From Methylomonas subterranea (GTDB lineage Bacteria; Pseudomonadota; Gammaproteobacteria; Methylococcales; Methylomonadaceae), in the NCBI RefSeq assembly GCF_024505185.1, contig NZ_JANIBJ010000025.1:1-64000 (forward strand): DNA of 64,000 nucleotides. Direction: 5' to 3'. This document shows, piece after piece, positions 29,400-47,755 of the stretch. Position numbers and translations under genes: made by a program. How positions within the stretch are numbered: the stretch's first letter is position 1; each line of letters starts with the position of its first letter. Below the pieces are notes generated by a model, which saw nothing but the letters and a program-made list of their open reading frames with translations, had not been told where the DNA came from and made no database searches.

Positions 29400-29454
29400 T
29401 GATTGCCATTGTTAAGTGTAGCGGCCCGATTACATCAATCGCGGGAACCGATTA

Positions 29455-29541
29455 CATCCGTTTTTCGAGACCACATTAGCCGAGAATATCGGTGCGCGCC
29501 GGCCCGTACAAAAAGAGAATGAACCCACTTTAATTGAGAAC
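29455..29541 (+). repeat. Left 87-bp terminal inverted repeat
   Basis: Begins CATCCGTTTTTCGAGAC and contains three spaced motif copies: ACATTAGCCGAGAAT, the variant GTACAAAAAGAGAATG, and ACTTTAATTGAGAAC. It pairs with 33023-33109 at about 81 of 87 positions. Confidence 0.85.
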
Positions 29542-29550
29542 GGCGGAAAC

Positions 29551-29827
29551 ATGTCGGCGCTTCCGGCCGTGGAGGTATATGTTATGAGCAAACCTGAGCC
29601 TATAGACGATTTAAGCGACGACGAGCGCAAACTGCTGATTGACGGCATTATGTCGGGAGCGTGGTTAGGCGTGGAATCAGGCCTGTGATGCTGCTGATGC
29701 GAATGGAAAGCGCCGACCTTCCTTGCGTCAGTTCGGTACCGATGACATTAAACGACTTGCTTGGCGAATTGGTGGTAGAACTGCCCATACTCACTGGCTT
29801 GAAGAGTACCGGCAAGTCGTTTTCTGA
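29551..29827 (+). pseudogene. Broken small gene just inside the left repeat
   Basis: An ATG at 29551 (or 29584, with GGAGG upstream) opens a frame through EPIDDLSDDERKLLIDGIMSG and stops at 29688. From about 29671 the next frame reads WNQACDAADANGKRRPSLRQ and then GTDDIKRLAWRIGGRTAHTH before a stop at 29827. The two look like halves of one small protein separated by a frameshift. No family was recognised. Confidence 0.4.
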
Positions 29828-30207
29828 ACGGTCCGACATACTCATCAAAAAATAAGTAAATCGAACGTAGTTTTATAGAACCAGTATTCTGTACTGAAAA
29901 TAGGCCAATTTCGATGGAAAATGACCGCACTGCCGACGTTCAAAAAAACCAGCGTTTTATCGAACCAAGTCGGCGGTGCACATAGCTGCAAAAACGCCAG
30001 GCATTACGATCGCAAAGCGACCACCGGTTTTTCCGATACAAACCCAGCCAGATTTTGAACGCCTTGGATCGGCCAAAAGCGGTCAATTCAAACCTCGATT
30101 TGAATGACCGGTTTAAACCCTATAGCCCCTAATGACGCTTTACATCATCGGCAGTAAAAGCATAGAGAGGAACGGGCGGAGCTTTTACTGTCCAAGCGTA
30201 TGGGGTG

Positions 30208-30954
30208 TTATGTGCTTTTATTTTCAATTTCTTTTGTGAAATTTGTTGTTGCCTCGATAACATGAAACTTCTGTAAATGGCCTTCTATAAAAGTCTGACC
30301 ATGTTCTATTAGTAGATTAATGCTTTGGTTTAGTATCTTAATATCAGCATTAAGCTCTAACAGAAAATTGTGCGCGGTATCTATGATATTGGCTAAGCGC
30401 TTGTCAACTGCTTTGATTAAAATTCCTTTAGCTACTTCATTTTCCGCAAAATCTTGATATATTCTTAGTAGATCATCTGCCGCTTCATTTATAGCTTGAT
30501 CCTGCAATGCTTTGTATTTAATTGTTTTATCATAAACTAACTGCTGTGCTTTTTCCCTTAATTCAAGTTGCATATTTCCAATAGCGTTAATAGCATTTAC
30601 ATTTAGCTTGGTTAATTCCTGTTGATATTTCATGACCGCCTCTGATACAGCAATCATTCTCTGCAACTCTTTGTCTTTTCTAAATTCTTCAATTTCCACA
30701 AAAATTCTTTGTATTTCCGTTTCTCTTTTTATGGAAAGATTAGTTTCAAGTTCCTTTTCTTTTGCCTTTATAGCTGATTCAGCTTCCATTTCCCTGATTC
30801 TATTTTTAGATTCTGCATTCAGCAGTTCTCGATCTCTTTCAACCCCTCTTTCATGATCCCATTTTCTTAAAGGCTCCTTCCCCCAGTCTGCTATAAGCTC
30901 TATTGGCTTCATAACAATATCACCGAGTTTTCCTAACTTTGAAAGTAAGCTCAT
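30208..30954 (-). CDS. Unknown coiled-coil protein of the island
   Basis: A 248-residue protein without a recognised domain. The N-terminal 30 residues (LLSKLGKLGDIVMKPIELIA) could form an amphipathic, membrane-seeking helix. Residues about 35-125 are strongly charged, Glu/Lys/Arg-rich heptad-like helix, and residues 125-240 are also helical. It has a strong ribosome-binding site (AGGAG, 7 bp spacing) and its start abuts the stop of the upstream gene (30954). It is the last of four co-oriented, AT-rich genes. AT-rich codon use sets it apart from the surrounding genome. A structural or scaffold role is possible, but no function can be assigned. Confidence 0.65.
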   Translation of the reverse strand: MSLLSKLGKLGDIVMKPIELIADWGKEPLRKWDHERGVERDRELLNAESKNRIREMEAESAIKAKEKELETNLSIKRETEIQRIFVEIEEFRKDKELQRMIAVSEAVMKYQQELTKLNVNAINAIGNMQLELREKAQQLVYDKTIKYKALQDQAINEAADDLLRIYQDFAENEVAKGILIKAVDKRLANIIDTAHNFLLELNADIKILNQSINLLIEHGQTFIEGHLQKFHVIEATTNFTKEIENKST

Positions 30955-31424
30955 TATAATTCTCCTTTTAACCGAATAATTTCTCTTTTAAATAATGCCC
31001 TATCTTTCTCATACTCCATTAATAATGCATTATAATTTTCGCTATCCTTAACCCCTGTCTCGATTATCTTATCCAGCAAGTCAATCTTTGATAGAATTAA
31101 ATTAGAAAAGAAGTCATTGTTATTTTGTGAGATTTCATCTATACCAGTCACAATATCTTTTGCGAGTTTTCTTACAGCTGTAAAATATAAAATTTCTGAT
31201 TTAAATTCAGGATATTGATTCCATATTTTAAAATGATAATTAACCCATGATGTAAAGTAGCTTTCAATTGCCAAGCACATTAACACAGAATCATTTTCAT
31301 ATTTATACATGGGAAAATAAATATCTTGCTCCTTGTTCTTAAAATCAGAAACTAGCCGCATTCTTGCGGATTTCAAAATATCTAAAATTGCAACTATTGA
31401 TCTTAATGACCCGTTCTTATCCAT
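30954..31424 (-). CDS. Unknown helical protein of the island
   Basis: A 156-residue soluble, predicted mostly helical protein with no recognised family. Features are an N-terminal helix SIVAILDILKSARMRLVSDF, an aromatic-rich middle (SYFTSWVNYHFKIWNQYPEF, about 55-75) and a charged C-terminal helix (EYEKDRALFKREIIRLKGEL). It overlaps the upstream gene by 8 bp and touches the downstream gene, indicating tight translational coupling. It is likely part of one complex with its neighbours. Confidence 0.62.
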   Translation of the reverse strand: MDKNGSLRSIVAILDILKSARMRLVSDFKNKEQDIYFPMYKYENDSVLMCLAIESYFTSWVNYHFKIWNQYPEFKSEILYFTAVRKLAKDIVTGIDEISQNNNDFFSNLILSKIDLLDKIIETGVKDSENYNALLMEYEKDRALFKREIIRLKGEL

Positions 31425-31917
31425 TCTTTTCTTTTACTTCCCTAGCTTCTTTTTTTGCGTCTTGCCTTATCTCTCCAATCATATCAAGAGTATGTTCTTC
31501 AATTAATCCACTCGAAAGATCTAGACTTTTAGTGTAGCTATCTACTAATTCTTTAATCCAAATAGATGCTACCTTAGAATCAACTTGAGATTCTTTTAAT
31601 GTAATAGATACCTCTTTTAGAGCCTCAGAAAAAAATTTCGTCCTTTCTTTCCTTAGATCTTCTTGAAGAGTAGCAGCGAACTTAATTTCTTCTTTATATT
31701 CCTTTATCAGTTCAAGATAATTCTTTTCATATTCATATAAAATCCTAAGTCTCTCTTGTAGCGTTAGCAATGACACTGTATTATTAACTTCTAGGTGTAT
31801 AGCCTTAATTATCGCTTTTTTTACGTTGGCGTCGATTTCGATACTTGAAAAAATCTCCTCAAGTCCTTTGACAAAATTATTCATTGTCATATCTTCTGTA
31901 GGTTGATTTATTGCCAT
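31417..31917 (-). CDS. Unknown coiled-coil protein of the island
   Basis: A 166-residue protein, helical and highly charged. An N-terminal globular-looking part (about 12-55) is followed by a long helix with ILYEYEKNYLELIKEYKEEI, and the C-terminus is rich in Lys/Glu (KKEAREVKEKNG). No family was recognised. The start at 31917 has a GAGAG ribosome-binding site. The 3' end overlaps the next gene by 8 bp, so three of the island genes form a tight unit, preceded at 47 bp by the DUF4238-like gene. Confidence 0.62.
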   Translation of the reverse strand: MAINQPTEDMTMNNFVKGLEEIFSSIEIDANVKKAIIKAIHLEVNNTVSLLTLQERLRILYEYEKNYLELIKEYKEEIKFAATLQEDLRKERTKFFSEALKEVSITLKESQVDSKVASIWIKELVDSYTKSLDLSSGLIEEHTLDMIGEIRQDAKKEAREVKEKNG

Positions 31918-31964
31918 ATTAATTCTCTCACTTCCTATTCTTAACGTTTTTGTTCGGCGGATTC

Positions 31965-32702
31965 TTATGCTGATGTATAGCTTCTGTTGCTTAAGAACTC
32001 GATCTTATCAAGGCTTCGGCAAAACACAAATGAGGAAGCTGAACTCATTATTTTTGTGTTTAGAAAAGCCACTTTTTCCTTTGTTAAATTAGCAGAGCCC
32101 CTGTCACGTTGAAGATAAATTGACGGACTCACCGGAACTAATTTTATCCTGTGATAGCAATCGGAAACCAAAAATTCAGTGTCAATGGCAGAGCGAATCA
32201 AGCCCCACCGCAGCTCTACTCTATTAGCTTGAGAGATGGCTAACCTTTGCGCTAGTCCTCTAACTGCTCTATCAAGTTGCGAGTCATCGCCAAAAAAAAT
32301 GCCTTGGCGCTCCAATTTTTCTTTTGTCTCTACGGCATAGCCTGACGGGTGAATATCTGTAACCGCATTTATTCCATCAAAGACATGATCTTTAGCGAGG
32401 CTCCGCTGACTTAGCAAACAATAGAACTGTTCAATTATCAACAGTTGAGACTCATCAAATGACTTGAGTCCATTGCAAATACAGGTTACTAGCTTCTGAA
32501 AGGCCGTCTCAATCGTTGAAGCCTCTCGCTCGATCTGTTCGTCCCATTTTCTTCGCGCCACGAAGCATTTATTGTCTGCTTTCGCAAAAAAGCTCTTCCC
32601 TTCCTTGAGGCGGACTACACTTACATCACCTCGATTTCCATCGTAGAATCTTTCGATTGATTTACGAGGAAGTATGTGTTGTTTTTTTATTACCCCTTGC
32701 AC
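31965..32702 (-). CDS. DUF4238-like protein of the island
   Basis: A 245-residue protein. It starts with KKQHILPRKSIERFYDGN, which resembles the N-terminal QHxxPxxxLxxF motif of DUF4238 proteins. The following layout also fits that family, with CFVARRKWDEQIEREASTIE and a long alpha-helical C-terminal part. DUF4238 is of unknown function and is often seen near mobile or defence genes. The start is GTG at 32702 with GAGG 9 bp upstream. It is the first gene of the four-gene leftward set. Family membership is tentative. Confidence 0.6.
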   Translation of the reverse strand: MQGVIKKQHILPRKSIERFYDGNRGDVSVVRLKEGKSFFAKADNKCFVARRKWDEQIEREASTIETAFQKLVTCICNGLKSFDESQLLIIEQFYCLLSQRSLAKDHVFDGINAVTDIHPSGYAVETKEKLERQGIFFGDDSQLDRAVRGLAQRLAISQANRVELRWGLIRSAIDTEFLVSDCYHRIKLVPVSPSIYLQRDRGSANLTKEKVAFLNTKIMSSASSFVFCRSLDKIEFLSNRSYTSA

Positions 32703-33198
32703 CTTTGTAAACCTCGCCAGGCATACGTTAATCTCAGCCTGAAATCCTTATAGTTCTAAACGCGATAACATACATTTTCCCCATGATAATCTGGTCAAAA
32801 TAAATTTGACAAACTAACTGATGGTCTTGAAATTCCTCAAAACGTTTTCAATGTCTGCTTTTTAGCCTTCTAGCGACATTCAGAAAATTTTTCGACAGAC
32901 GGCTCAGGGTCGATTGCGACAATTCGCCACTTCCAAAAGACGTCATTCACTAATGGCGTAATCGTATCGGAATGGGTAAGCCATTCTCAGTTAATGTGGT
33001 TCCTACCCGATGTTATCGGACTGTTCTCAATTAAAGTGGGCTCATTCTCTTTTAATGTGGGCCGGCGCGCACCGATATTCTCGGCTAATGTAGTCTCGAA
33101 AAACGGATGCAGTTAAGCGCCGCCAGACAAACCCGTTCACTAATGCGTTCTCCGTAACTCGGCGTTTAAACCGGGTAAGTTTAAACGCCGAATCGGAT
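32703..33198. other. Right part of the AT-rich element and its junction
   Basis: A 496-bp stretch without a gene. It should contain the leftward promoter for the island genes (32703-32800, AT-rich). An extra copy of the end motif, TTCTCAGTTAATGTGG, begins near 32984, followed by the right terminal repeat (33023-33109) and about 90 bp of ordinary sequence before the efflux operon. Confidence 0.5.
33023..33109 (-). repeat. Right 87-bp terminal inverted repeat
   Basis: Three spaced copies of the motif read TTCTCAATTAAAGTGG, TTCTCTTTTAATGTGG and TTCTCGGCTAATGTAG, and the repeat ends CGAAAAACGGATG. It is the inverse of 29455-29541, with a fourth motif copy lying outside this block at about 32984. 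Confidence 0.85.
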
Positions 33199-34356
33199 TC
33201 ACGGTTTATTGGCGGCGATAATCCGTCGCAGATGCGGCTCCACGCCGTCCAACTCGTGAGAATAGATGTCGGTTCGATAGGCGTCGCCGCCGATATTGAC
33301 GTTGGACAGCAACACGGGTTCTCCGGGTTCGCCAGTGTTGATGCGAGTCACCGTCGAAAGCCCCGGTTGCAGCGGATTATCCGATAGCTCCTGGCGATTA
33401 AACCCTATCCGTACCTGCACCCGCTCGGCCACATGAATAAAGTTGCCGGTGGCATTGTCGGTCGGCAACAAGGCAAAAGTGCTGCCGGTGCCGGGTGCAA
33501 TGCCTTGCACGATGCCGTGATATATCCTGGCATCGCCATACGCGTCGACTTTTATTTCCGCCGCTTGCCCCGGGCGAATAGCGGACACCTGGGTCTCCAA
33601 AAAGTTGGCATTTACCCACAGATCGTCCAGCGGTACTATCGCCAACAACGGCGCGCCGGCCTTAACATAGTCGCCCACTTGAACCTTGCGCTTGGCGACA
33701 TATCCCGACACCGGCGCAACGATATTACGGCGGTGGAAGTCCAAATAGGCCGCACGCACCCGGCTTTTGGCCTTTTCAACCATGGGATGCCGCTCGAGCG
33801 CGATTCCGTTTACCTGAGCCTCCAGACTGATTTTTTCCGCCCGGCTTTCCCGTATGCCGGCTTCCAGCTCACGAATTTTGTCCCTGGCGTTTTGCACCTG
33901 CTGATCGGATACCGCGCCGTCGCGCGCCGCCGCCTTAAAACGTTCGAAATCGTGGCGGACCTGATCCAGAGTCGCCTCTCGGGCGACAATACGCTGTTCC
34001 AGGGTATCGACTTTGGCAGCCATGCTGACCAAATTGCGGACGATTTCGCCTAATTCGGCCTCGGCCTGTTGCAGGGCGAGTTCCGCGTGCGCGCCGTCCA
34101 GGCTTACCAACACCTGGCCCTTTTGCACGTGCAGGGTGTTTTCGGTGGAAATTTCCACCACTATGCCTTCCGTCTGCGCTTTCAACTGAATCAGATGCCC
34201 CGCTACAAAAGCATCGTCGGTACTCACATGGTTGCGGTTGAACACCCACCAATAGCCGGTGGCGCCCAAGCCCGCCAATACGAAGGCGAGCGTCAGGTAT
34301 TTCATACGCCGGTTACGCTGCCGGAGAATTTCCCTGGGACGGATTTTAGTGTGCAT
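33199..34356 (-). CDS. HlyD/EmrA-family membrane fusion protein
   Basis: A 385-residue periplasmic adaptor with one N-terminal membrane helix (YLTLAFVLAGLGATGYWWVF). The typical EmrA block NHVSTDDAFVAGHLIQL follows, then a lipoyl half-motif, a long coiled-coil hairpin (about 95-200) and the second half-motif (NIVAPVSGYVAKRKVQVGDY). It works with the MFS pump and TolC-like channel encoded upstream. The start at 34356 overlaps the TolC gene by 11 bp; the frame could begin at 34401. It is the last gene of the efflux operon. Confidence 0.88.
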   Translation of the reverse strand: MHTKIRPREILRQRNRRMKYLTLAFVLAGLGATGYWWVFNRNHVSTDDAFVAGHLIQLKAQTEGIVVEISTENTLHVQKGQVLVSLDGAHAELALQQAEAELGEIVRNLVSMAAKVDTLEQRIVAREATLDQVRHDFERFKAAARDGAVSDQQVQNARDKIRELEAGIRESRAEKISLEAQVNGIALERHPMVEKAKSRVRAAYLDFHRRNIVAPVSGYVAKRKVQVGDYVKAGAPLLAIVPLDDLWVNANFLETQVSAIRPGQAAEIKVDAYGDARIYHGIVQGIAPGTGSTFALLPTDNATGNFIHVAERVQVRIGFNRQELSDNPLQPGLSTVTRINTGEPGEPVLLSNVNIGGDAYRTDIYSHELDGVEPHLRRIIAANKP

Positions 34357-35818
34357 GGCTGTCTTTTTGATCCTTGGTCTTCGTTTCGTTAAAGCCGCCA
34401 CCCAACGCCTTGATTACTTGCACCGCAACTTTGAAATGCCGGCCTTGCAATGCCGTCAAGCGCAAACGTTGTTGCTGTTCCTCCAGGCAGGCCAGCGTTA
34501 AATCCGTATTATTGTTAAGCCCGCTGCGAATAAGGCTGACCGCCAAGTCTTTGGCCCGAACCGCTTCGGCAACACTCTGCGTCTGCTCGGCAATGCGCTT
34601 ATCGATTTCCCGCCAGCGGGCCAGAGCGTCGGCCACCTCCTGAACGGCGCGCAACAGGCTGCCGTTATAAACCTCCACGGCGGTGTCATAAGCGGCTTCC
34701 CGGTAACTCAAATTGGCCCGCAAGCGCCCTCCCTCGAAGATTGGAAACTCTATCGACGGGCCCACCGCATAGGCCAGACTGGCGCCCTGCAACAACACAT
34801 CGGTCATGCTGACGCTGTGCAAGCCCGTAAAGGCAATCAGATTGACATCGGGGTAGAAGGCGGTTTCCGCGACTTTGATCTGCCGCGCGGCGGCTTGCGC
34901 ATGCAGGCGCGCGGCGGCCACATCTGGCCGGTGCGCCAAAAGCCGTAACGGTAGGTCAACGGGTACGGCGAATGACTTCGGCCGAACACCGCCCGCCATC
35001 GCAATACCGTGCCCCCAATCCGGACCTTGCCCGGCCAGAGTAGCCAACAGATTCCTTTGCAATGCCGCTTCGGCACGCAAACCCGCTGCCTGTTGTCTGG
35101 CAGCCTGCAACGCCATTCGGGCTTGCAATACCGGTGCTTCGGTCGCCAAGCCGGCCGCCAGGCGCGCCTGATGCAGCTTGAGCAAAGTTTCGCTCTCCGT
35201 GGCGATACGTTCCGCAATCAGCAGTTTTTCGCCGGTCGTCAGCAAATCGAAATAGCCGGCCGCGACCGCGGAGGCTAGCAACAATTTGGCATCGGCCAAT
35301 TCGGCATCCACGGCCAGCGACCTGCCCACGGCGGCTTCCAATGCGGCTTGGTCGCGTCCCCAAAAATCCAGGTGATACCGTAAGATCAAGGGATTGATCA
35401 GTAGTTGGCGAAAATTTTCGCCGGCGAATCTGACTTGAGTGCTATTGGCCGAAAAGCGCTGCGCGCTGAAGCTGACGTTGGCGTCAACCGTGGGATAAAG
35501 CTCAGCTGCCTGCGCATCAACCATGGCTTGCGATTGCCGCAAACGCGCCGCCGCCGCCTGCAAATCGGGATTGCCCGCCAAAGCCGTTGTAATCAACCGA
35601 GTCAATTCAGGACTATTGAAACTCTCCCACCAATGGGCTTGCGGCCACGCGGCATCGGCGAATACCCGCGAACCGGCGTCGGCCAGCGTCAGCGACATGG
35701 CCGGCATCGTCATCATCTCCGCCCGCCGGGTCTCATCTCCGAACCAGGCGCAACCCGATGCCGCGATTGCCACGAGTAGCGAAAATAGTCGCGCCGGAAC
35801 GCGCGCGGCCCAGGCCAT
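34346..35818 (-). CDS. TolC/NodT-family outer-membrane efflux lipoprotein
   Basis: A 490-residue RND/MFS-type outer-membrane factor. The N-terminus has a lipoprotein signal with lipobox AASGC (about residue 23), then the paired outer-membrane efflux repeats: WWESFNSPELTRLITTAL, NPDLQAAAARLRQSQ and the later duplicate with PDVAAARLHAQAAARQIKVA. The NodT-like lipoprotein form is indicated. Its ATG overlaps the MFS stop (TAATG), so it is translationally coupled to the pump. Confidence 0.87.
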   Translation of the reverse strand: MAWAARVPARLFSLLVAIAASGCAWFGDETRRAEMMTMPAMSLTLADAGSRVFADAAWPQAHWWESFNSPELTRLITTALAGNPDLQAAAARLRQSQAMVDAQAAELYPTVDANVSFSAQRFSANSTQVRFAGENFRQLLINPLILRYHLDFWGRDQAALEAAVGRSLAVDAELADAKLLLASAVAAGYFDLLTTGEKLLIAERIATESETLLKLHQARLAAGLATEAPVLQARMALQAARQQAAGLRAEAALQRNLLATLAGQGPDWGHGIAMAGGVRPKSFAVPVDLPLRLLAHRPDVAAARLHAQAAARQIKVAETAFYPDVNLIAFTGLHSVSMTDVLLQGASLAYAVGPSIEFPIFEGGRLRANLSYREAAYDTAVEVYNGSLLRAVQEVADALARWREIDKRIAEQTQSVAEAVRAKDLAVSLIRSGLNNNTDLTLACLEEQQQRLRLTALQGRHFKVAVQVIKALGGGFNETKTKDQKDSHAH

Positions 35819-37413
35819 TACGGTTCTTCTATCAGCATTTCTTGGGTTTCCAGGCGTTGCTGTTGTTTTAGCGTGCGTTGCGCGGACAACTTGGTGGGCT
35901 TGGCAAACCAAACCAGCACCGCCAAGCCCATAAACAGGCAACTCGCCAACCAAAACGCATCGTTCATGGCCTGAATTACCGCGTTCCGGCCCGCCAGCCT
36001 GGCCAGTTTGGCGATGGCGGCCGTCTCGTCAAAGCCCGCCGAAACCAGGCTATCCAGGGTTTGATCGAGTCTCGAGTCGAAGATCGTGTGGGATTCGGCG
36101 AAATGCGTCATATGCATGGGCGCGCGCCGGTAAATAACGATGCCTTGCAGGGCAATGCCCATGGCGCCGGCGGCGATACGCAACAGACTGGCCAACTCCA
36201 CCGCGCGCCAGGTCCGTTCCGGCGGTAAGCCGTGCAGGAACAAAGCGGTCACGGGTACAAAAAAGCTGCCCAGGCAGGCGCCTTCCAAAACCTTGGGCCA
36301 GAACAATTGCGCAAAAGCGTCGTGGCCGTCGAACAGGCTCAGCCAATAATAGACCGCTGCAAAGCCCAGGCAATTAAGCGAGACCAGCAAGCGCGCATCG
36401 AAGTATTTAACGACTTCGTGGAACACGCTGGCGACCGGCTTGGCAAAAATCGCCATCGGTAGAAACACCAAGCCCGCCAATAAGGATGAATAGCCCATAG
36501 CCAATTGCAATTGCACAATTAACATCGACAACAAGCCTTGGAACATCAAAAAGCCCAGAAATAAAATGACCACGCCTATCGTGAAATTGCGCTGGGTAAA
36601 TAAGCCGATGTCCAGAAAAGGCCGGCGCTGGCCGAGTTCCCAGACCACCCAATAACTCAAGGTCACCACAACCGATACCAGCAGGCCGTCGAGATAAAAA
36701 GAGTGAGTCCAATTCCAGTCGTTACCTTGATTCAGCAAGGTTTGTACTCCGAACAAAGCCAGTGTAATCAGCACGAAACCCAAGGCATCAAACCGCTGCC
36801 TAATGCGCGCGCTGCCGCGGCGATAAAGCAAGGCGCCGACGATACCGCCAATCAGCAGCGCGGCGGGAATATTGAGCCAGAATAACCAACGCCAGCCCAG
36901 TGTGTCGGCTATCCAGCCGCCCAGCGGTTGGGCAAAGGTGAATGGTGTCAGGGTAAACACGCTCCAAACCCCCATGCCTATGGATTTTCGTCGGTCCGGG
37001 TATTCCTTGATCAGCAGGGATTGCCCCAAGGGCAAGGTCAAACCGCCGGCGAACCCCAACACGATACGCCCGGCCAAATACGCGTAAAACGAGGTAACCC
37101 ACGCGCAAATAACCGAGGCCAGCGCGAACGCAAAACACGCAGCCACAAACGGACGGTATTCGCCCAGCCGCCGGGACAGCCAGCCTCCCACCGGAAACGC
37201 CAATGCCAGCCCTATCATGTAATCCGTCTGGGTCCAGGTAGCGAAGCTGGGGGGAATGCCAAGACCGGCCGCGACACGCGGCAACATGGCGATATAGGCG
37301 CCGGCATTGAATGTCACCAGTGCATGGCTCAAGCCCAAGCACAGATTGAATAGCAAAAAATGCCATCCTTGCAGCTTTTGCGCCTCGCCGGTAGCTGGAG
37401 TCAAGGCCTTCAT
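35818..37413 (-). CDS. MFS multidrug efflux pump, DHA2/EmrB type
   Basis: A 531-residue, 14-helix major facilitator transporter. The first helix LLFNLCLGLSHALVTFNAG, the motif-A-like loop with GWLSRRLGEYRPF, and GRIVLGFAGGLTLPLGQSLL place it in the EmrB/DHA2 group. With the HlyD protein and the TolC channel it forms a tripartite pump for toxic organic compounds; the substrate is unknown. A start at 37461 is possible and would overlap the lipoprotein gene by 23 bp; 37413 was preferred for spacing before the first membrane helix. Confidence 0.88.
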   Translation of the reverse strand: MKALTPATGEAQKLQGWHFLLFNLCLGLSHALVTFNAGAYIAMLPRVAAGLGIPPSFATWTQTDYMIGLALAFPVGGWLSRRLGEYRPFVAACFAFALASVICAWVTSFYAYLAGRIVLGFAGGLTLPLGQSLLIKEYPDRRKSIGMGVWSVFTLTPFTFAQPLGGWIADTLGWRWLFWLNIPAALLIGGIVGALLYRRGSARIRQRFDALGFVLITLALFGVQTLLNQGNDWNWTHSFYLDGLLVSVVVTLSYWVVWELGQRRPFLDIGLFTQRNFTIGVVILFLGFLMFQGLLSMLIVQLQLAMGYSSLLAGLVFLPMAIFAKPVASVFHEVVKYFDARLLVSLNCLGFAAVYYWLSLFDGHDAFAQLFWPKVLEGACLGSFFVPVTALFLHGLPPERTWRAVELASLLRIAAGAMGIALQGIVIYRRAPMHMTHFAESHTIFDSRLDQTLDSLVSAGFDETAAIAKLARLAGRNAVIQAMNDAFWLASCLFMGLAVLVWFAKPTKLSAQRTLKQQQRLETQEMLIEEP

Positions 37414-37438
37414 ACGCGGGCCCTGTTTACCCGGTTTT

Positions 37439-38305
37439 TCAAAGCGGCCAGCCGAATTCATGCAGGCCTTGCGTTAACAGCCGCGAACTCATCAGCGCCA
37501 AACGCTGTTTAAAAACCTCGCTGTCCCGGTTAAGCGTGTTTTCGCCAACTGGCTCGGTGGTAAAGGCATCCGCGCGAGTGCGGGCAATCACCCGTCCGCT
37601 CTGGGGGTCTATCAACTTCATCAGCACCTGCAGCGACATCTGCCCGGCGAAAATCCGATAGCTGCCCAAGCCCAGTTCCAATACCGCGTCAATATCGGCA
37701 TGGCGCCGATAATCGGCAGCGGCCGTATCGCGTCCGTACCAAGTCAAAGTGGCATCGTGCCAATGGCTCAGCTGCGCGTTTCTATCGGTATCCGCCATCG
37801 GCAGACCGTAATAATCGCGGCTCAAGCTTGCCTTGATCTTGTGCTCGCCCAATTTCCGCAGGGCCTGCCGTGCCAGTAGCAAGGTCGGCGTCCAGCTTGG
37901 CGCGGAACCGATTGCCTGGCGCGGCGGCATTGGCTCATCCTGAATGGCCACTTCGTCGGCATCGTCGCCCGGACTGACTAAGCCGGCCACGACGACATCA
38001 CCCGATGTCATATACAGTTTTTGCCGCAGCGGAAAATCGATGGCCATATTGAGGTAATGCGCGTAAGCGGGAACGCGGGCCGCAATCGGGTCGGGACTGA
38101 TTTCCAGCGGGGGCGATTCGACCGGGACGATCAGGATGCTGTTGAGCTTGGCGACGGCGGAAATTGGCGGTTTGATGGCGGGCGCCCAGCAGCCGCCGAC
38201 CGCAAGGGCCAACGCAACGATAAGAGCGGGCTTTATTTTGCAGGCCTTAAAAACACCCCGGCGGTTTGTATTCACACGGATGTCGAACGACGTTTTCATA
38301 CGCAT
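37439..38305 (-). CDS. Putative lipoprotein, first gene of the efflux operon
   Basis: A 288-residue protein with no recognised enzyme domain. After a basic N-terminus it has a hydrophobic segment and lipobox (LALAVGGCWAP, about residues 31-41). The remainder looks like a periplasmic beta/alpha fold with an internal segment VLELGLGSYRIFAGQMSLQV, reminiscent of outer-membrane assembly-type lipoproteins. It is 25 bp upstream of the MFS gene start used here. It may assist the efflux complex or be an unrelated surface lipoprotein. Confidence 0.65.
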   Translation of the reverse strand: MRMKTSFDIRVNTNRRGVFKACKIKPALIVALALAVGGCWAPAIKPPISAVAKLNSILIVPVESPPLEISPDPIAARVPAYAHYLNMAIDFPLRQKLYMTSGDVVVAGLVSPGDDADEVAIQDEPMPPRQAIGSAPSWTPTLLLARQALRKLGEHKIKASLSRDYYGLPMADTDRNAQLSHWHDATLTWYGRDTAAADYRRHADIDAVLELGLGSYRIFAGQMSLQVLMKLIDPQSGRVIARTRADAFTTEPVGENTLNRDSEVFKQRLALMSSRLLTQGLHEFGWPL

Positions 38306-38442
38306 GGACTCCTATAAAAAGTTGCACATTGCTAGCGGACGAATTCGTGATTCGTGGCTGGTGACAACTATAGGAAGTCAATTTATATAAGACAAACGAT
38401 TTTTATTGGACTTTAATATCGACAAATCCGATACTAAGAGCC

Positions 38443-39303
38443 ATGGACATCGAGCAGATCAAGACCTTTTTAAGCGTCGCCGCCAACGGCAGCTTTCTGG
38501 AAGCCGCCGCCAGGCTGTATGTCACGCAATCGACGGTCAGTACCCGCATACAACGTTTGGAAGCCTATATGGGCGTTACCTTGTTCGTGCGCAATCGTGC
38601 CGGCGCTACCTTGACGCTGCCGGGGCGGCGCTTTTTGCGTCACGCCAAAACGCTGTTAATCACCCTGGAACAAGCACGCCACGACATCGGCCTGCCCAGC
38701 CGCTATCGAGCCAGTATTACCCTCGGTGCGCGCATCGCCCTGTGGGAATCCTTACTACCGGAATGGCTAGGCATCATCCGCGGCCAAGTAGCGGATGTTT
38801 CAATACGCAGTGAAATCGGATTTGAAGAAGATCTGATGCGCGGCGTCATCGAAGGTTCGATGGATATAGGCATGATGTATACGCCGCAACACAACCCCGG
38901 CCTCAAGGTCGAGCATTTATTCGATGAAACCCTGGTGTTGTTAACCTCTGACCCGGCAAAACCCTGGCCTAACGACGATTACATCTACGTCGACTGGGGT
39001 CCGGGGTTTTACGCCCAACACAGCAATGCCTATCCCAATCTGGAGCGTCCGCCCCAGGTCGTCAATATCGGCTGGCTGGCCGTGCAATTAGTGGTATGCA
39101 ATGGCGGCTCGTGCTTTTTACCCATTCGCATCGCCGCGCCGCTGATAAAAGAACGCAAACTGTTTCAGGTACCCGGCAGCCTGCAATTCAAATTACCGGC
39201 CTATATGGTATCATCACTTGATAGCGATTCAATCATATTGCAGCAGATACTGGATAACTTAAGGTCACTGGCCGCGATCGAGCGGCGGAAAAGCTACGGC
39301 TAA
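38443..39303 (+). CDS. LysR-family transcriptional regulator
   Basis: A 286-residue LTTR. The N-terminal winged HTH (MDIEQIKTFLSVAANGSFLEAAARLYVTQSTVSTRIQRLE region, about 1-45) is followed by a ligand-binding domain (about 88-280). It is divergent from the efflux operon with a 137-bp shared region, the classic layout in which the regulator controls the neighbouring operon. The shared region is AT-rich, with an imperfect palindrome near 38377-38393 (GTC...TTATATAA...GAC). Confidence 0.88.
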   Translation: MDIEQIKTFLSVAANGSFLEAAARLYVTQSTVSTRIQRLEAYMGVTLFVRNRAGATLTLPGRRFLRHAKTLLITLEQARHDIGLPSRYRASITLGARIALWESLLPEWLGIIRGQVADVSIRSEIGFEEDLMRGVIEGSMDIGMMYTPQHNPGLKVEHLFDETLVLLTSDPAKPWPNDDYIYVDWGPGFYAQHSNAYPNLERPPQVVNIGWLAVQLVVCNGGSCFLPIRIAAPLIKERKLFQVPGSLQFKLPAYMVSSLDSDSIILQQILDNLRSLAAIERRKSYG

Positions 39304-39360
39304 AGCCGGGTCTGCGGCGGACATATCCGCAACAAGCGGACGACGTTTTTACAGATAAAA

Positions 39361-39382
39361 AAGCCCCTTTTTAGAGGGGCTT
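39361..39382 (-). terminator. Terminator for ssb (minus strand)
   Basis: AAGCCCCT (39361-39368) pairs with AGGGGCTT (39375-39382) over a 6-nt loop. Read on the minus strand, the stem is followed by a T-run (complement of the A-run at 39355-39360), so it mainly ends the ssb transcript. It may also work weakly for the LysR gene. Confidence 0.7.
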
Positions 39383-39416
39383 ATGTTCACATACTTTACA
39401 GAACAGTCTCAGGTAA

Positions 39417-39514
39417 GGATTCCGCCCCAAATAACTTCCCTATTTATATCCCTCACCCTAGCCCTCTCCCGGAGGGAGAGGGAACAGAATGCGGAAGTTA
39501 TAGGGGCGGAATCT
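39417..39514 (+). repeat. MITE-like palindromic repeat, copy C
   Basis: The best-preserved copy. Outer arms are GATTCCGCCCC and GGGGCGGAATC, inner arms ATAACTTCC and GGAAGTTAT, with a central palindrome CTCCCGGAGGGAG. It lies between the ssb stop and its terminator. Nearly the same as copy B over its whole length. Confidence 0.88.
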
Positions 39515-39522
39515 TATGTCGG

Positions 39523-39981
39523 TCAAAACGGAATATCGTCGTCGAAATCGTCGTAACTGGCCGGAGCGGGTTGCGAGGGCATGGACGAAGCCGGGCGGCT
39601 GTCATAATTGCCGGCGGGCGGTGCGTTGTCGGCATAGTTGGCGGTACCGCCGCTACGGCTGTCCAGCATGTGCATGTTATCGGCAACGATTTCGGTGGTG
39701 TATCTATCCTGACCGTCCTGGCCTTGCCATTTCTGGGTGCGAATGCGGCCTTCGACATAACACTGGCTGCCTTTCTTCAAATATTCGCCGGCGATTTTCG
39801 CCAAACCGCTGAAAAACACCACTCTATGCCATTCAGTGTCTTCCTTGCGCTCACCGGTATTACGGTCTTTCCAGCGGCGGCTGGTAGCCAGTCGAATGGT
39901 GGTGATGGCGTCGCCATTCGGCATATAGCGCACTTCCGGGTCGGCCCCCAGGCGGCCGATCAGCATGACTTTGTTCAACAT
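39523..39981 (-). CDS. ssb: Single-stranded DNA-binding protein
   Basis: A 152-residue SSB. The OB fold starts [22 protein letters not shown], continues with [20 protein letters not shown] and [11 protein letters not shown], and a Gly/Pro/Ser-rich linker leads to the acidic tip DDFDDDIPF, the partner-binding tail. It protects single-stranded DNA in replication and repair. It is followed by repeat copy C and preceded by an MFS gene 35 bp upstream in the same direction. The ssb-MFS-uvrA arrangement, with uvrA divergent, is common in gammaproteobacteria. Confidence 0.95.
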
Positions 39982-40016
39982 GATTGTCTCCCTATAAAAA
40001 ACTTAACCGCAACGGC

Positions 40017-41402
40017 TTATTGCCACTGCTTTAAAAAAATATTCAATTCGTTTTTGTTCAGCCGCTGGCTATCGACTTTCAGATAGGCGGTATTTTCCTC
40101 GAAATGCAAACGCACCTCCTCGACACCGTTGATGGCCAGCAACTGCCTGGAAAATTCCGTGCCCCGTTCCGGTTTGACGGCTTGCAGCGACAGCAGCAGA
40201 TTGGCCAGATAACGCGGCGGCGACATGAATAAGGCGATCAGCGCCCAGCTGGCGGCAATGGCGGCGGAAAATATAAACACCGAGGTCGGACCGTATTCGC
40301 CGTATAGCCAACCACCGCTGGCACCGCCTAAAAATGCGCCGACGAATTGGGCGCTGGAGTAAATACCCATGGCGGTGCCCTTCAAATCGCCCGGCGCGGT
40401 TTTGGAAATCAATGACGGCAAGGTGGCTTCCAACAAGTTAAACCCGCAGAAAAACACCCACAGGCAGGCAATCAAACCGACCAACTGACCATGCAGCAAG
40501 GTGAAACCCAGATTGGCCAACACCAGCGAAACAATGGCGCCGACGAAGACGGTCTTCATGCGGCGTTTCTTCTCGGCGATGATCACGAACGTAATGATGG
40601 CGGCCATCGAAGTAACCAGTACCGGTAGGTAGACCAGCCAATGTTTGCCGGCCAGCAGCCCGGCATCCCGCATCAATAGCGGCACCACCACGAAGCTGGC
40701 CATCAGGATCAGATGCAGCGCAAAAATACCGTAATTGAGCCGCAGCAAGTCGGCGTTTTTGATCACCGAACTCAATTCGGACGGAATGTATTCGGCGTCG
40801 CGATGCACGCTGATTTTTTGCGGATTCGGCACGATGAACAAGACCACCGGCACCGCCAGCGAAGCCAGCAAGGCAATCAGCCAGAATATGCCGCTGATGC
40901 CGAAATGATGCGCAATCACCGGCCCCAAAGTCATCGCCACCCCGAAGGAAACCCCAATGCTGGCACCTATGGTCGCCATGGCCTTGGTGCGGTTGACTTC
41001 CTGCGTCAGGTCGGCCAACAAGGCCATCACCGCCGCCGAGACGGCTCCGCAACCCTGCAGGGCGCGGCCTATCAAAATGCCGTAAATGTCCGTGGCCAAC
41101 GCGGCCACCACGCTGCCGGCCAAAAACAGCAACAAACCGATGACGATAATCGCCTTGCGGCTGAAACGATCCGACAACAATCCGAACGGAATTTGCAGCA
41201 CGGCCTGGGTCAAGCCGTAAATGCCCATGGTCAAGCCGACCAGTTTGGGCGTCGAGCCCGGCATTTGTTCGGTAAACAGCGACAATACCGGCAATAACAT
41301 GAACAAACCCAGCATTCTGAGCGAATAAATACCGGCCAGCGAAACCGTTGCCCGCTTTTCCATGCGCGTCATTGCACCCGAAACATCCTGAACCTGTGTC
41401 AA
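40017..41402 (-). CDS. MFS transporter with C-terminal YAM-like domain (YajR type)
   Basis: A 461-residue, 12-helix MFS protein. The motif A loop GLLSDRFSRKAIIVIG and helices up to about residue 390 are followed by a soluble C-terminal domain (about 400-461, GVEEVRLHFEENTAYLKVDS). This matches the small ferredoxin-like YAM domain of E. coli YajR. The start is TTG at 41402 because GAGGAG lies 7 bp upstream. The substrate is unknown. It is divergent from uvrA and upstream of ssb. Confidence 0.83.
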   Translation of the reverse strand: MTQVQDVSGAMTRMEKRATVSLAGIYSLRMLGLFMLLPVLSLFTEQMPGSTPKLVGLTMGIYGLTQAVLQIPFGLLSDRFSRKAIIVIGLLLFLAGSVVAALATDIYGILIGRALQGCGAVSAAVMALLADLTQEVNRTKAMATIGASIGVSFGVAMTLGPVIAHHFGISGIFWLIALLASLAVPVVLFIVPNPQKISVHRDAEYIPSELSSVIKNADLLRLNYGIFALHLILMASFVVVPLLMRDAGLLAGKHWLVYLPVLVTSMAAIITFVIIAEKKRRMKTVFVGAIVSLVLANLGFTLLHGQLVGLIACLWVFFCGFNLLEATLPSLISKTAPGDLKGTAMGIYSSAQFVGAFLGGASGGWLYGEYGPTSVFIFSAAIAASWALIALFMSPPRYLANLLLSLQAVKPERGTEFSRQLLAINGVEEVRLHFEENTAYLKVDSQRLNKNELNIFLKQWQ

Positions 41403-41478
41403 ACCCCAACTCCTCTTTGCCTTGCGTCGTGAAAGGCACGTATAGTATCAGGTTCTTTAAATTGCAGGAATCGACACA

Positions 41479-44295
41479 GTGGACACCATCAGCATACGCG
41501 GCGCCCGCACCCATAACCTGAAAAACATTGACCTGGACCTGCCCCGGGACAGCCTGATCGTCATTACCGGGCTGTCCGGTTCCGGCAAATCGTCGCTGGC
41601 CTTCGATACCATTTACGCCGAAGGCCAGCGACGCTACGTGGAGTCCTTGTCCGCCTACGCCCGGCAGTTCTTGTCGATGATGGAAAAACCCGATGTCGAT
41701 CATATCGAAGGCCTGTCGCCGGCCATTTCCATCGAGCAGAAGTCCACCTCGCACAATCCACGCTCGACGGTCGGCACCATTACCGAGATTTACGACTATC
41801 TGCGCCTGCTGTATGCCAGGGTCGGTATTCCACGTTGTCCGGAACACGGCGGTTCGCTGGAGGCGCAAACCGTCAGCCAGATGGTGGACCAGGTATTGGC
41901 GCAGCCGGAAGGCGAACGTTGGATGCTGCTGGCGCCGGTGGTCAACGATCGCAAGGGCGAACACGTGCTGCTGCTGGAAGACCTGAAGGCCCAGGGTTTT
42001 CTGCGCGCCCGCATCGACGGCGAAGTCTACGAACTGGACGAGCCTCCGGCGCTGGATTTAAAGAAAAAACACACCATAGAAGTCATCGTCGACCGCTTCA
42101 AAATACGCGACGACATTGCCTTGCGGCTGGCGGAATCGTTCGAAACCGCGCTACGCCTGTCCGACGGCCTGGCGATGGCCGTTTCCATGGAAACCGAACA
42201 AACCCTGCTGTTTTCCGAACGCTACGCCTGCCCGCATTGCGGTTACAGCTTGAGCGAACTGGAACCGCGCATCTTTTCCTTCAACAACCCCAAGGGCGCC
42301 TGCCCCAGCTGCGACGGTCTGGGGGTGCGCCAGCATTTCGATCCGCAACTGGTGGTGCACAATCCGGACATCAGTCTGGCCGGCGGCGCGGTGCGCGGCT
42401 GGGACCGGCGCAACGCCTACTATTACCAAATCATTTGCGCGCTGGCCGAACGTTACGGCTTCGATCCGGAAATGCCGTTCTCGAAAATTCCCAAACAAAT
42501 ACAGGCGGTGATTCTGTACGGTAGCGGCGAAGACAGCATCACCTTTCAATTCCAGATGGGCCAGGGCAAACCCAAGATCAGTCGCCATCCTTTCGAGGGC
42601 ATCATTCCCAACATGGAACGCCGCTATCACGAAAGCGATTCGCAGATGGTGCGCGACGAGCTATCCAAATATCTGGCCCAACAAACCTGCGAGGTCTGCG
42701 ACGGCGCCCGTTTGAACCTGGGCGCGCGCAATGTGTTCGTGGCCGACCAGCCTTTGCACCACGTCACCCGCCAGCCTATCAAGCAGACGCTGAGCTTTTT
42801 TCAGCAATTGTCCATACCCGGCCACCGCGGCGAAATCGCCGCCAAGATCAATAAAGAAATACAGGAAAGGCTGGAATTTTTGGTCAACGTCGGCCTGGAC
42901 TATCTGACCCTGGACCGCAGCGCCGACACCTTGTCCGGCGGCGAAGCCCAGCGCATACGCCTGGCCAGCCAGATCGGCGCCGGCCTGGTAGGGGTAATGT
43001 ACGTGTTGGACGAGCCGTCTATTGGTTTGCATCAGCGCGACAACCAGCGGCTGTTGAATACGCTATTCAGATTGCGCGACTTGGGCAACACCGTCATCGT
43101 GGTCGAACACGACGAGGACGCCATTCGCGCCGCAGACCACATCGTCGATATCGGTCCCGGCGCCGGCGTGCACGGCGGCCAAATCGTCTCGCAAGGCTCG
43201 CCCGCGCATATTCTGGCGGACGCCGCTTCGTTGACCGGCCAATACCTTTCCGGCGCGCAAACCATAGATGTGCCGAAGCAAACCACAGCCAACGACGCGG
43301 CCCGTCAATTGACCATCCGCAACGCCCGAGGCAACAACTTACAGAACGTCACCGTGAATTTTCCGGTAGGCTTGTTGACCTGCGTCACCGGCGTGTCCGG
43401 TTCCGGCAAGTCCACCCTGATCAACGACACCCTCTACAGCCATGCGGCACGCATCATCAACGGCGCCAGCTGCATTCCGGCACCCTGCGACGCCGTCGAG
43501 GGCCTGGAACAGTTCGACAAGGTGGTGGACATCGACCAAAGCCCGATCGGCCGCACGCCGCGCTCCAACCCGGCAACCTACACCGGCATTTTCACGCCGG
43601 TGCGGGAGCTGTTCTCGGCCACGCCGGAAGCCCGTTCGCGCGGCTATACGCCGGGCCGCTTCAGCTTCAACGTCAAGGGTGGGCGCTGCGAGGCCTGCTC
43701 CGGCGACGGCGTCATCAAGGTGGAAATGCATTTTCTGCCGGACATTTTCGTGCCTTGCGATATCTGCCACGGCAAGCGCTACAACCGGGAAACCCTGGAA
43801 ATCCGTTATAAAGGCAAGACCATCCACGAGGTGCTGGAGATGACGGTGGAGGACGCCGCGCAGTTTTTCTCCGCGGTACCCAGTCTGGCCCGCAAGCTGC
43901 ATACGCTGATAGAGGTTGGCTTGAGCTATATCACGCTGGGTCAAAACGCCACCACCTTGTCCGGCGGCGAAGCGCAGCGGGTCAAACTGGCCAAGGAATT
44001 ATCCAAACGCGATACCGGCAAAACGCTGTATATTTTGGACGAACCCACCACCGGTCTGCATTTTCACGACATCAAGCAATTGCTGTCCGTGCTGCACACG
44101 CTGCGCGACCATGGCAACACCGTCATCATCATCGAGCATAATCTGGACGTGATTAAAACGGCGGACTGGATTGTGGATATGGGGCCGGAAGGCGGCAATG
44201 GCGGCGGCAGGCTGGTGGCCGAAGGTACGCCGAGACAGATTGCCCAACATGCCGAATCGCATACCGGGGTTTATCTGCGGCGCTTTTTCGATTGA
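41479..44295 (+). CDS. uvrA: Excinuclease ABC subunit A
   Basis: A 938-residue damage-recognition ATPase of nucleotide excision repair. It has two ABC units: Walker [11 protein letters not shown] (about 31) and [10 protein letters not shown] (about 640), and signature [12 protein letters not shown] and [12 protein letters not shown]. The zinc modules are [19 protein letters not shown]...CPSC and [19 protein letters not shown]...CDIC. It begins with GTG at 41479, matching the conserved N-terminus [18 protein letters not shown]. Full length for the family. Confidence 0.96.
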
Positions 44296-44299
44296 AATC

Positions 44300-44375
44300 T
44301 GGTGGGTGCTGAGGGGTTCGAACCCCCGACCCTCGCCTTGTAAGGGCGATGCTCTCCCAGCTGAGCTAAGCACCC
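44300..44375 (-). tRNA. tRNA-Val (anticodon UAC)
   Basis: A complete 76-nt cloverleaf on the minus strand. The acceptor stem GGGTGCT pairs with AGCACCC. The D-arm contains AGCTCAGCTGGGAGAGC, the anticodon loop CTTACAA has anticodon TAC, the T-arm is GGGGGTTCGAACCCC, and CCA is encoded. It lies 4 bp beyond the convergent uvrA stop. Confidence 0.95.
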
Positions 44376-44690
44376 GACTGCAACCGGCGGGCATTCTATC
44401 CAAATTGCCCGGCAATGCAAGACGTTTTTTAGCGCCGGTTAAAAAATCTCTACAAACCTTCCCATAAAAACGTGAAATCCGGCACGGAACAAATATCGTT
44501 TTGCCTATAGTTGTAAAAAATCATACTTAGCATATCTTTATGTAATTAGACGCTTACACTTTGAAGCAGTTATCTGTCCCAATGTCGGAAGCGCGAGCTG
44601 TTGGAAATATCCGGCTAGCTCGTCAAGCAAGGGACTCCCCGACTGGCGCACCTGAAAAATCAATATTGCAGCCCAATCAAATACAAAGAT
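44376..44690. other. Leader region before the GGDEF gene
   Basis: A 315-bp stretch between the tRNA and the GGDEF gene. It contains the tRNA promoter area (leftward) and, at 44584-44643, a potentially structured RNA: GTCGG/CCGAC closes a region with a long hairpin CGAGCT...AGCTCG (44594-44622) and a small GGG-ACT-CCC hairpin. It does not match the c-di-GMP riboswitch consensus as far as can be seen. No promoter was assigned. Confidence 0.3.
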
Positions 44691-45725
44691 ATGACCAACA
44701 GCACAGCACTATTACCGATTTACGATTTTTCCCATGCCCTGAACGCCAACTACCTGAACAAAATCATTCCGCTGTTGACTCAGCATCAAATTGCCGCCAA
44801 TCCAATCAATTACGCCATTTTTTACGATTACGTCAGCGAGCTGAATCCGGCCTTGAACTCGGCCGTCAGCCGCCTGCTGAGCCAAAATGCGGCATTCGAT
44901 TGCGAGACCAGCCTTGGGCTGTACGGCAACTTTATCAGCAACGCGCCTTTAAAATCCTTCGACACCATTCAACAAAAAATCCATAAGGTGATACGTCAGG
45001 CAACCGATGCCATCAACGACACCTGCCACAAGGCCGAACAGACTAACGACAGTTTCCGCAAAAAATCGGCGATATTGGAGAAAAAACCGGAAATTGCCAC
45101 CACCCAATCGATTTTGCAGGAAATCATCCTGGAAACAAAATCGCTCGCCGCCACCAGCTATGCGATGCAGATGCAGCTAAATCAGGCTAAATCGGAAATG
45201 GAGGAATTGCGCAACGAGTTGATCCAGGTCAGGCAAATGGCGGTCACCGACGGCCTGACCGGCTTGTTGAACCGGCGGGCATTCGATCAGACTTTACACG
45301 AAATTATCGAACAGCCGATCGGCGAATCCACCTGCCTGTCCTTGCTGGACATCGATCACTTCAAGCGTATCAACGATACCTTCGGCCATACCATAGGCGA
45401 TAACGTGATCAAGTTTGTGGCGTCCTTATTGAAGAAACATGCCGAGCAACATCATCATGTGGCGCGCTACGGCGGCGAGGAACTGGCCATCATCATGCCC
45501 AATACGCCCAAGCGCAAGGCTATCGAGATCGCCGAAAACATTCGCCTGGACATGGAAAATAGCCGCTTGAAACGCAAAACCGATAACGCAACCCTGGGCC
45601 AAATCACACTTTCGGTCGGTATCGCCGAACTGCAAGCCGACGATAACCCGGAAAGCTTCATAACCCGCGCCGATACCGCCCTTTATCAAGCCAAGGAATC
45701 GGGCCGCAACCGGGTCATGCATTAA
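44691..45725 (+). CDS. GGDEF diguanylate cyclase
   Basis: A 344-residue cytoplasmic protein. The N-terminal half (about 1-175) is helical without a membrane segment and resembles the N-terminal regions of soluble GGDEF proteins. A coiled-coil linker with EMEELRNELIQVRQMAVTDG leads into the GGDEF domain (about 183-344). The active site is RYGGEELAII near residue 257, an accepted GGEEF-type variant, and LTGLLNRRAFD and DIDHFKRINDTFGH are intact. It should make c-di-GMP, which the two PilZ proteins could sense. No RxxD inhibitory site was clearly seen. Confidence 0.87.
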   Translation: MTNSTALLPIYDFSHALNANYLNKIIPLLTQHQIAANPINYAIFYDYVSELNPALNSAVSRLLSQNAAFDCETSLGLYGNFISNAPLKSFDTIQQKIHKVIRQATDAINDTCHKAEQTNDSFRKKSAILEKKPEIATTQSILQEIILETKSLAATSYAMQMQLNQAKSEMEELRNELIQVRQMAVTDGLTGLLNRRAFDQTLHEIIEQPIGESTCLSLLDIDHFKRINDTFGHTIGDNVIKFVASLLKKHAEQHHHVARYGGEELAIIMPNTPKRKAIEIAENIRLDMENSRLKRKTDNATLGQITLSVGIAELQADDNPESFITRADTALYQAKESGRNRVMH

Positions 45726-45811
45726 CTCATCGAGGTAGGGCATCGGCAGCAAATAAAAGGCTGTCGCGATTGTCGCCCTCATCATGGCAACGAGAGCGTA
45801 GCTGCCAATGA

Positions 45812-45997
45812 CCTTCAGCGTAACGTTCATGAAGGCCTGGCGATCGCCCCGGCAAATGAAAGTAGTGCAGCTGGGTACGGTTCCTCGCCGGACAGGACGC
45901 CGTAAATACGTCCGTGTAGGCTCGACGGCAGCATCCTTGCTGCCGACGCCTGTCCAACAAGCAACCGTACCCGCCCGATTTTTTACTTTCAGAGTAA
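45812..45997 (+). repeat. ~186-bp intergenic repeat, copy 1
   Basis: Bounded by imperfect direct repeats of CTTTCAGAGTAA (here CCTTCAGCGTAA at the start and a perfect copy at the end). The body includes GTAACGTTCATGAAGG, GCAAATGAAAGTAGTGCAGC, CTCGACGGCAGCATCCTTGC and GTCCAACAAGCAACCGTACC. It is nearly identical to 61641-61825 and to the inverse of 58290-58467. Confidence 0.88.
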
Positions 45998-46000
45998 AAA

Positions 46001-46030: not shown

Positions 46031-46057
46031 TTCGGCAAACCATCCGTTTGCCGATCC

Positions 46058-47747: not shown

Positions 47748-47755
47748 AGCCGTAT

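What the first reader, a model, noticed from the sequence alone, without database searches (positions are those of the whole stretch)
29455..33109. Transposon-like shell with 87-bp motif-rich inverted repeats but no transposase
Manual alignment shows the two ends match at about 81 of 87 positions in inverse orientation. Each end holds several copies of TTCTC-N3-TAATGTGG, an arrangement typical of transposase-binding sites in multi-site elements (IS21, Mu or Tn7 type). The interior is AT-rich and gene-bearing, yet contains no transposase or integrase. This suggests a non-autonomous unit that carries cargo and is moved in trans, or one that has lost its transposase.
Basis: partly seen in the sequence, partly recalled or inferred. 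Interest (0 to 1): 0.75.

Follow-up and report, generated by a model that had tools for sequence, protein, structure and literature searches.

The report
Disabled transposon carrying possible defence genes
A stretch of DNA in a methane-eating bacterium is a jumping-gene relic that kept its ends but lost the enzymes that would move it, and it carries four genes of unknown function that may protect against viruses; intact relatives of the element exist in other bacteria.

Summary
The 87-bp inverted repeat (81/87) and six good motif copies are real. Comparison with other genomes moves the borders out to 29417-33111, flanked by a 6-bp direct repeat GTTAAG (29411-29416, 33112-33117). The same ends bound complete transposons elsewhere: Methylomicrobium sp. 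RS1 (serine resolvase, DDE transposase, AAA ATPase; duplication GTTAGG) and a Methylomonas EFPC1 plasmid (18.4 kb, metal cargo; CTTATT), and a 661-bp transposase-less element in Chitinimonas (CCTACT). The window element keeps the DNA upstream of the resolvase gene (a likely res site, 29838-29969, 79-84% identity) but none of the three transposition genes. Its cargo occupies the passenger position: a DUF4238-like gene and a three-gene operon also seen on ColE1-type plasmids, a viral contig and other Methylococcales. The right end lacks 36 bp of the conserved tip, so the copy is probably immobile now. Related transposase genes found in this genome are fragments of divergent branches. No empty site was found. 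Whether the transposition genes were lost before or after insertion, and what the cargo does, is unproven.

The parts
29411..29416 (.). left copy of the 6-bp target duplication GTTAAG
   Evidence: identical to 33112-33117; relatives have 6-bp duplications at the same distance from the tip
29417..29541 (-). left end with complete tip TGTAGCGGCCC; sites at 29471-29486 and 29525-29540, a decayed site at 29504-29519
   Evidence: profile hit 29560-29416; 75-86% identity to about 125-130 bp of most fetched ends; sites
29542..29837 (.). 296 bp between left end and res-like segment; stands where resolvase, tniA and tniB stand in relatives; two short overlapping reading frames
   Evidence: no blastn match among the fetched loci; sequence
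29838..29969 (+). likely res (resolvase binding) site left from an autonomous ancestor
   Evidence: 81% to L016, 84% to L107, 79% to L112, in each just upstream of the resolvase gene and in the same orientation
30208..30954 (-). cargo gene C, 248 aa, helical, unknown function
30954..31424 (-). cargo gene B, 156 aa, unknown function
31417..31917 (-). cargo gene A, 166 aa, helical, unknown function
31965..32702 (-). cargo gene, 245 aa, DUF4238-like (below cut-off)
   Evidence: PF14022 E 0.015; relatives in 206 plasmid records, all under 60% identity; in none of 36 congeners
32981..33111 (+). right end with four sites (32984, 33024, 33045, 33078); 36 bp of the conserved tip missing between 33109 and 33110, terminal CA present
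33112..33117 (.). right copy of the 6-bp target duplication GTTAAG

Best explanation
29417-33111 is a non-autonomous derivative of a transposon whose complete relatives encode a serine resolvase, a DDE transposase (TniA-like) and an AAA ATPase (TniB-like) between multi-site inverted repeats of about 165 bp. Shown: shared ends, a 6-bp target duplication, a retained resolvase-upstream segment, absence of the three genes, cargo in the passenger position, and absence of 36 bp of the right tip. Inferred: transposase bound the site arrays, paired the ends and joined the CA-ended tips to a 6-bp staggered target with central TA, leaving GTTAAG on both sides. The resolvase-tniA-tniB block was lost before this (the element was then moved in trans) or after it. 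With its right tip incomplete the element is probably fixed now. The cargo (DUF4238-like gene plus operon A-B-C, one strand) is an accessory module carried as passenger, plausibly anti-phage.
For: Same ends with flanking 6-bp duplications in L016, L015, L112 and L106; transposase, ATPase and resolvase between them in L112, L107 and L016; transposase-less L106; GTTAAG on both sides of the window element; resolvase-upstream segment at 29838-29969; 14 of 16 tips not drawn with the scan pattern are followed by NNTA; gene C in none of the congeners searched and the DUF4238-like gene in none of 36.
Against: No empty site. In L107 the flanking 6-mers differ at one of six positions. Two of the 16 tips lack the central TA. 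Many fetched ends stand alone without a partner or transposase in the stretch read, so the profile also marks relics. The window's right end has no full tip. A defence role of the cargo has no direct support: no PADLOC match and a weak neighbourhood test.
Confidence: 0.85

Rival explanations
1. The element inserted as a complete autonomous transposon and decayed in place: the resolvase-tniA-tniB block and the right tip were lost by deletion, so this copy was never moved in trans.
For: The retained resolvase-upstream segment shows an autonomous ancestor; the right tip is damaged; decayed copies occur, such as L015 with transposase and ATPase split over several frames.
Against: No blastn trace of the three genes remains; 296 bp of other DNA stand in their place. 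Transposase-less copies with exact duplications occur (L106).
Confidence: 0.4
2. The element transposed with its present short right end: CGGATGCA served as the terminus, so the 36 bp were already absent at insertion and the copy may still be mobile in trans.
For: CA stands directly at the duplication.
Against: The fetched ends that keep the outer part end in the long tip; no other short end next to a duplication was seen. L010 also stops short, but no duplication was shown for it.
Confidence: 0.1
3. Two independent solitary ends that happen to flank ordinary genes.
For: Solitary ends are common in the fetched loci.
Against: Inverted orientation, 93% identical arms, GTTAAG on both sides, and the resolvase-upstream segment inside.
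Confidence: 0.03
4. A fixed ancestral locus whose ends are regulatory repeats.
For: It lies between two convergent chromosomal genes.
Against: The same ends bound unrelated DNA in unrelated bacteria; the DUF4238-like gene is in 0 of 36 congeners.
Confidence: 0.01

Closest known systems
Transposons annotated by NCBI as 'IS481 family transposase' plus 'ExeA family protein' or 'AAA family ATPase'
   Same: Transposase relatives in 787 plasmid records; the order resolvase, transposase, ATPase in L150, L151 and L152 as in L112; for L151 and L153 boxes with TAATGTGAG or a close form and a TACA tip follow the ATPase gene
   Different: The window element has none of the three genes; the box sequences of these members differ from the window's
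Tn552 (recalled: transposase, ATPase, resolvase, long inverted repeats)
   Same: Same organisation in complete relatives; arrays of transposase sites at the ends are stated for Tn552 in PMC8649781 (section 6)
   Different: Its sequence was not compared here
Tn5053/Tn402 family
   Same: DDE transposase, AAA ATPase, serine resolvase, site arrays at both ends
   Different: No TniQ among the genes scanned of L112; only remote similarity of the transposase to a Tn5053-type TniA; duplication of 6 bp, not 5 (5 recalled)
Miniature and non-autonomous cassettes (MITE, mobile insertion cassette)
   Same: Ends of an autonomous family without its transposase; L106 is a 661-bp case
   Different: The window element carries four genes and a res-like segment, and one tip is incomplete
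DUF4238 and three-gene anti-phage systems of P2-like phages (PMC9122126, one passage seen)
   Same: The cargo also combines a DUF4238-like gene with a three-gene operon without known domains
   Different: Homology to those systems is not shown; none of the four cargo proteins matches PADLOC

Membership tests
Transposon family of L112/L016 | Shared terminal sequence with site array | tested here: met
   Profile hits at both ends; right tip lacks 36 bp
Transposon family of L112/L016 | 6-bp duplication with central TA | tested here: met
   GTTAAG on both sides
Transposon family of L112/L016 | Own transposase, ATPase and resolvase | tested here: not met
   No tblastn match inside the window element for the L016 transposase and ATPase or for the resolvases used; hence non-autonomous derivative
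Tn5053/Tn402 | TniQ | tested here: not met
   Not among the matches of the four L112 proteins scanned with Pfam nor of the L016 transposase and ATPase; PF06527 absent from the window's genome
Tn5053/Tn402 | TniA homology | tested here: inconclusive
   hhalign probability 24.5, E 8e-4 over 94 columns
Tn552 | Sequence relation to its transposase | not tested
   Its sequence was not at hand and was not typed
IS481 | Transposase over the curated cut-off; single gene (recalled) | tested here: not met
   L112 transposase 77.5 bits against 224; ATPase and resolvase are present in relatives
IS21 | IstA over the curated cut-off | tested here: not met
   L016 transposase 20.4 bits against 160
Non-autonomous element (MITE or cassette type) | Ends of a known autonomous element, no transposase | tested here: met
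Known anti-phage system (cargo) | Match to a PADLOC model | tested here: not met
   0 families at E<=1 for 4 of 4 proteins; among 11 A-gene members two weak single-member matches

The most novel reading that the evidence does not exclude
A family of TniQ-less transposase/ATPase/resolvase transposons, for which I found no name, has non-autonomous forms that ferry a new three-gene anti-phage operon (A-B-C, also on ColE1-type plasmids and a viral contig) between distant bacteria.
Probability: 0.2. Interest if true: 0.65.

Novelty: new variant of a known kind. Interest (0 to 1): 0.45.

Why it matters
The borders of this transposon family can be read from DNA alone (tip, box array, 6-bp duplication), including copies without transposase that surveys starting from transposase genes miss. 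It also points to a conserved, uncharacterised three-gene module carried by several kinds of mobile DNA, which can be tested for phage defence in laboratory E. coli.

Tried and rejected
IS21 and IS481 membership: the transposase of complete relatives scores far below the curated cut-offs. Mu was not tested apart from a weak Pfam match to a Mu C-terminal domain. Empty site: 37 genomes of the genus were searched with each flank. Matches to the left flank end at or before query position 987 of 1004 (apart from the window itself), those to the right flank begin at position 95 or later, so the DNA at the insertion point has no counterpart to compare; in some genomes, G027 for example, the two genes lie about 5 kb apart. 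The junctions were not read base by base. Transposase in the same genome: a TniA-like fragment at the end of contig C39, and on C42 a C-terminal piece with an ATPase gene whose boxes read TAATGTGAGAA. Viral contigs: 0 matches to the tip pattern; gene C not found there by its peptide patterns, although the contig fetched with gene A carries it; gene C not found in phage records. Structures: genes C and A gave helical models of low confidence (pTM 0.34 and 0.35), so no fold search was made. Defence neighbourhood: 51 of 129 selected neighbouring ORFs gave 8 PADLOC families, each in 1 to 3 members; of 10 ORFs scanned singly one matched, weakly. This is not support for defence. Solved structures: two marginal matches for the transposase (E 0.065 and 0.069, retroviral integrase core) and none for the ATPase. 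PHROGs: only weak matches of unknown function for gene A, none for the other three window cargo proteins. Literature: nine searches listed no paper that I recognised as describing this family. I saw listings, passages of PMC8649781 and its section 6, passages of PMC6350997 and one of PMC9122126. My notebook gives the missing tip as 37 bp; the recount is 36.
Full report
OBSERVATION. The two arms (29455-29541 and 33023-33109) match at 81 of 87 positions. The motif TTCTC-N3-TAATGTGG with at most one mismatch occurs six times in the 64 kb, all six in the two ends, against 0.06 expected from base composition. With up to three mismatches it is no more frequent than in shuffles. In the window's own genome the right-end sequence matches only these two places at E<=0.001.

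TRUE BORDERS. The right end was found in 9 of 101 genomes, the window's own included, and the left end in 9 plasmid records. Lined up, most of these ends stay alike for 38 bp beyond the 87-bp repeat, to a tip GGGCCGCTACA or close to it (L010 stops short, and L007, L014 and L015 are shifted by a few bases). The window's left end has this tip (element start 29417). The right end goes from CGGATG straight to CA (33111), so 36 of the 38 bp are missing. Directly outside both borders stands GTTAAG (29411-29416 and 33112-33117).

TARGET DUPLICATIONS. In other loci with both ends: L016 CTTATT/CTTATT, L015 CATAGG/CATAGG, L112 GTTAGG/GTTAGG, L106 CCTACT/CCTACT, and L107 GTTAGC/TTTAGC with one difference. 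Two contigs of G058 break off inside the same end and have GTTAGC outside, in opposite orientations; they probably hold the two sides of one copy. Of 16 distinct tips that the script recognised and that did not come from the pattern scan, 14 have TA at flank positions 3-4; L130 and L131 do not. Five rows without a recognised tip were left out of that count: the window's right end, L008, L010, L129 and the left end of L106 (a scan locus).

COMPLETE RELATIVES. A scan of the genome-contig collection with the tip pattern gave 23 loci. The end profile marks an end in 22 of 23; L115 only weakly (E 0.35, at a contig edge), L117 not at all. Transposase or ATPase of this family lies in 4 of 23 (L107, L108, L112, L119). 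L112 (Methylomicrobium sp. RS1) spans 187-4683 with ATPase, transposase, serine resolvase and, as passenger, a PIN-domain gene with a Phd/YefM-like partner (the partner below cut-off). L016 (Methylomonas sp. EFPC1 plasmid) spans 30138-48501 with ATPase, transposase, chromate and heavy-metal efflux genes; a resolvase match lies at 33578-33159 but is not in the gene table. L107 has the same order. L015 (P. syringae plasmid) has both ends and matches to all three genes, but transposase and ATPase are split over several frames and the resolvase match is in two pieces. L106 (Chitinimonas) is a 661-bp element with both ends and no match to the transposase or ATPase.

RES SEGMENT AND ORDER. Window 29838-29969 is 79% (L112), 84% (L107) and 81% (L016) identical to the DNA just upstream of the resolvase gene, in the same orientation, and it holds a GTTC...GAAC dyad; calling it a res site is an inference. 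In these relatives the order is end, tniB, tniA, resolvase, res segment, passenger, end. In the window it is end, 296 bp without a blastn match among the fetched loci, res segment, cargo, end. So the cargo stands in the passenger position and the three transposition genes are missing.

THE HOST GENOME. It holds a TniA-like fragment at the end of contig C39 (54% identity over 402 residues) and, on C42, a C-terminal TniA piece (35% over 149) with an ATPase gene (41% over 324), followed by boxes of another sequence (TAATGTGAGAA) and a CTACA tip. No complete transposase of this kind was found; the assembly has 104 contigs, so one could hide in a gap.

CARGO. Four genes on the minus strand: a 245-aa protein with weak DUF4238 similarity (E 0.015, below cut-off) and A, B, C (166, 156, 248 aa). 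A, B and C lie together in order A-B-C in L048-L055, eight of the nine other genomes of the order in which C was found, all from other genera of the same family; in the ninth (L056) only a C fragment was seen. They also lie together in the E. coli and Salmonella small plasmids read (L045, L046) and, as C-A-B with a very weak B (19%), on an Azospirillum plasmid (L047). In all, C matches 17 and A 19 plasmid records. An IMG/VR contig (L120) has A, B and C behind phage replication and HNH genes. No Pfam, NCBIfam or PADLOC family passes a cut-off for A, B or C; the nearest is Pfam OSCP for A, 21.7 bits against 22.3. The DUF4238-like gene was found in 1 of 37 genomes of the genus, the window's own. 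One passage of PMC9122126 reports that a DUF4238 protein protects against T7 and a three-gene system without clear domains against P1; homology of our genes to either is not shown.

FAMILY. The transposases share D161, D241 and E284; reading these as the DDE triad is my inference. The transposase best matches the IS481 model, below its cut-off. A TniA next to TniB, TniQ and a resolvase in G013 (L148; TniQ by profile, the others named by order) is only remotely alike (probability 24.5, E 8e-4). No TniQ was matched among the L112 proteins scanned. PMC8649781 (section 6 read) describes arrays of about 20-bp transposase sites at both ends of Tn7, Tn5090, Tn5053 and Tn552. I therefore say that the family works like a Tn552/Tn5053-type transposon and do not file it as a Tn5053 member.

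MECHANISM. Shown: ends, duplication, res segment, missing genes, incomplete right tip. Inferred: transposase bound the arrays and joined the tips to a 6-bp staggered target; the transposition genes were lost before (movement in trans) or after insertion. The data do not separate these two orders. I lean slightly to the first, because no trace of the genes was detected and because L106 shows that transposase-less forms insert. The incomplete right tip makes the present copy probably immobile.

LIMITS. No empty site was found. The function of the cargo is unknown; defence is a guess from the company it keeps on mobile DNA, and the neighbourhood test did not support it.

Noticed in passing
L151 1-5999 and L150 1-5996 (Pseudomonas plasmids): Genes annotated TniQ and recombinase (with a mer operon in L151) stand directly upstream of the resolvase of this family, as if a Tn5053-type transposon had inserted near its res site.
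   Followed up: no
L045 3424-5367, L046 3138-5069, L120 4881-6816: The three-gene module A-B-C of the window cargo is also on small ColE1-type plasmids and on a viral contig.
   Followed up: partly
L020 1-2500 (own genome, contig C42): Relic of a related transposon: resolvase, C-terminal TniA piece, ATPase, boxes TAATGTGAGAA and a CTACA tip followed by ACTAGA, on a contig with plasmid-like genes.
   Followed up: partly
L019 8713-11374 (own genome, end of contig C39): Another related fragment: resolvase and a truncated TniA beside efflux genes and a 47%-identical homologue of a passenger gene of L016.
   Followed up: partly
window 30034-30078: Short dispersed repeat with three other matches in the own genome.
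   Followed up: partly
window 33160-33190: Perfect 12-bp hairpin CGGCGTTTAAAC/GTTTAAACGCCG between the element and the convergent HlyD gene, perhaps a terminator.
   Followed up: no
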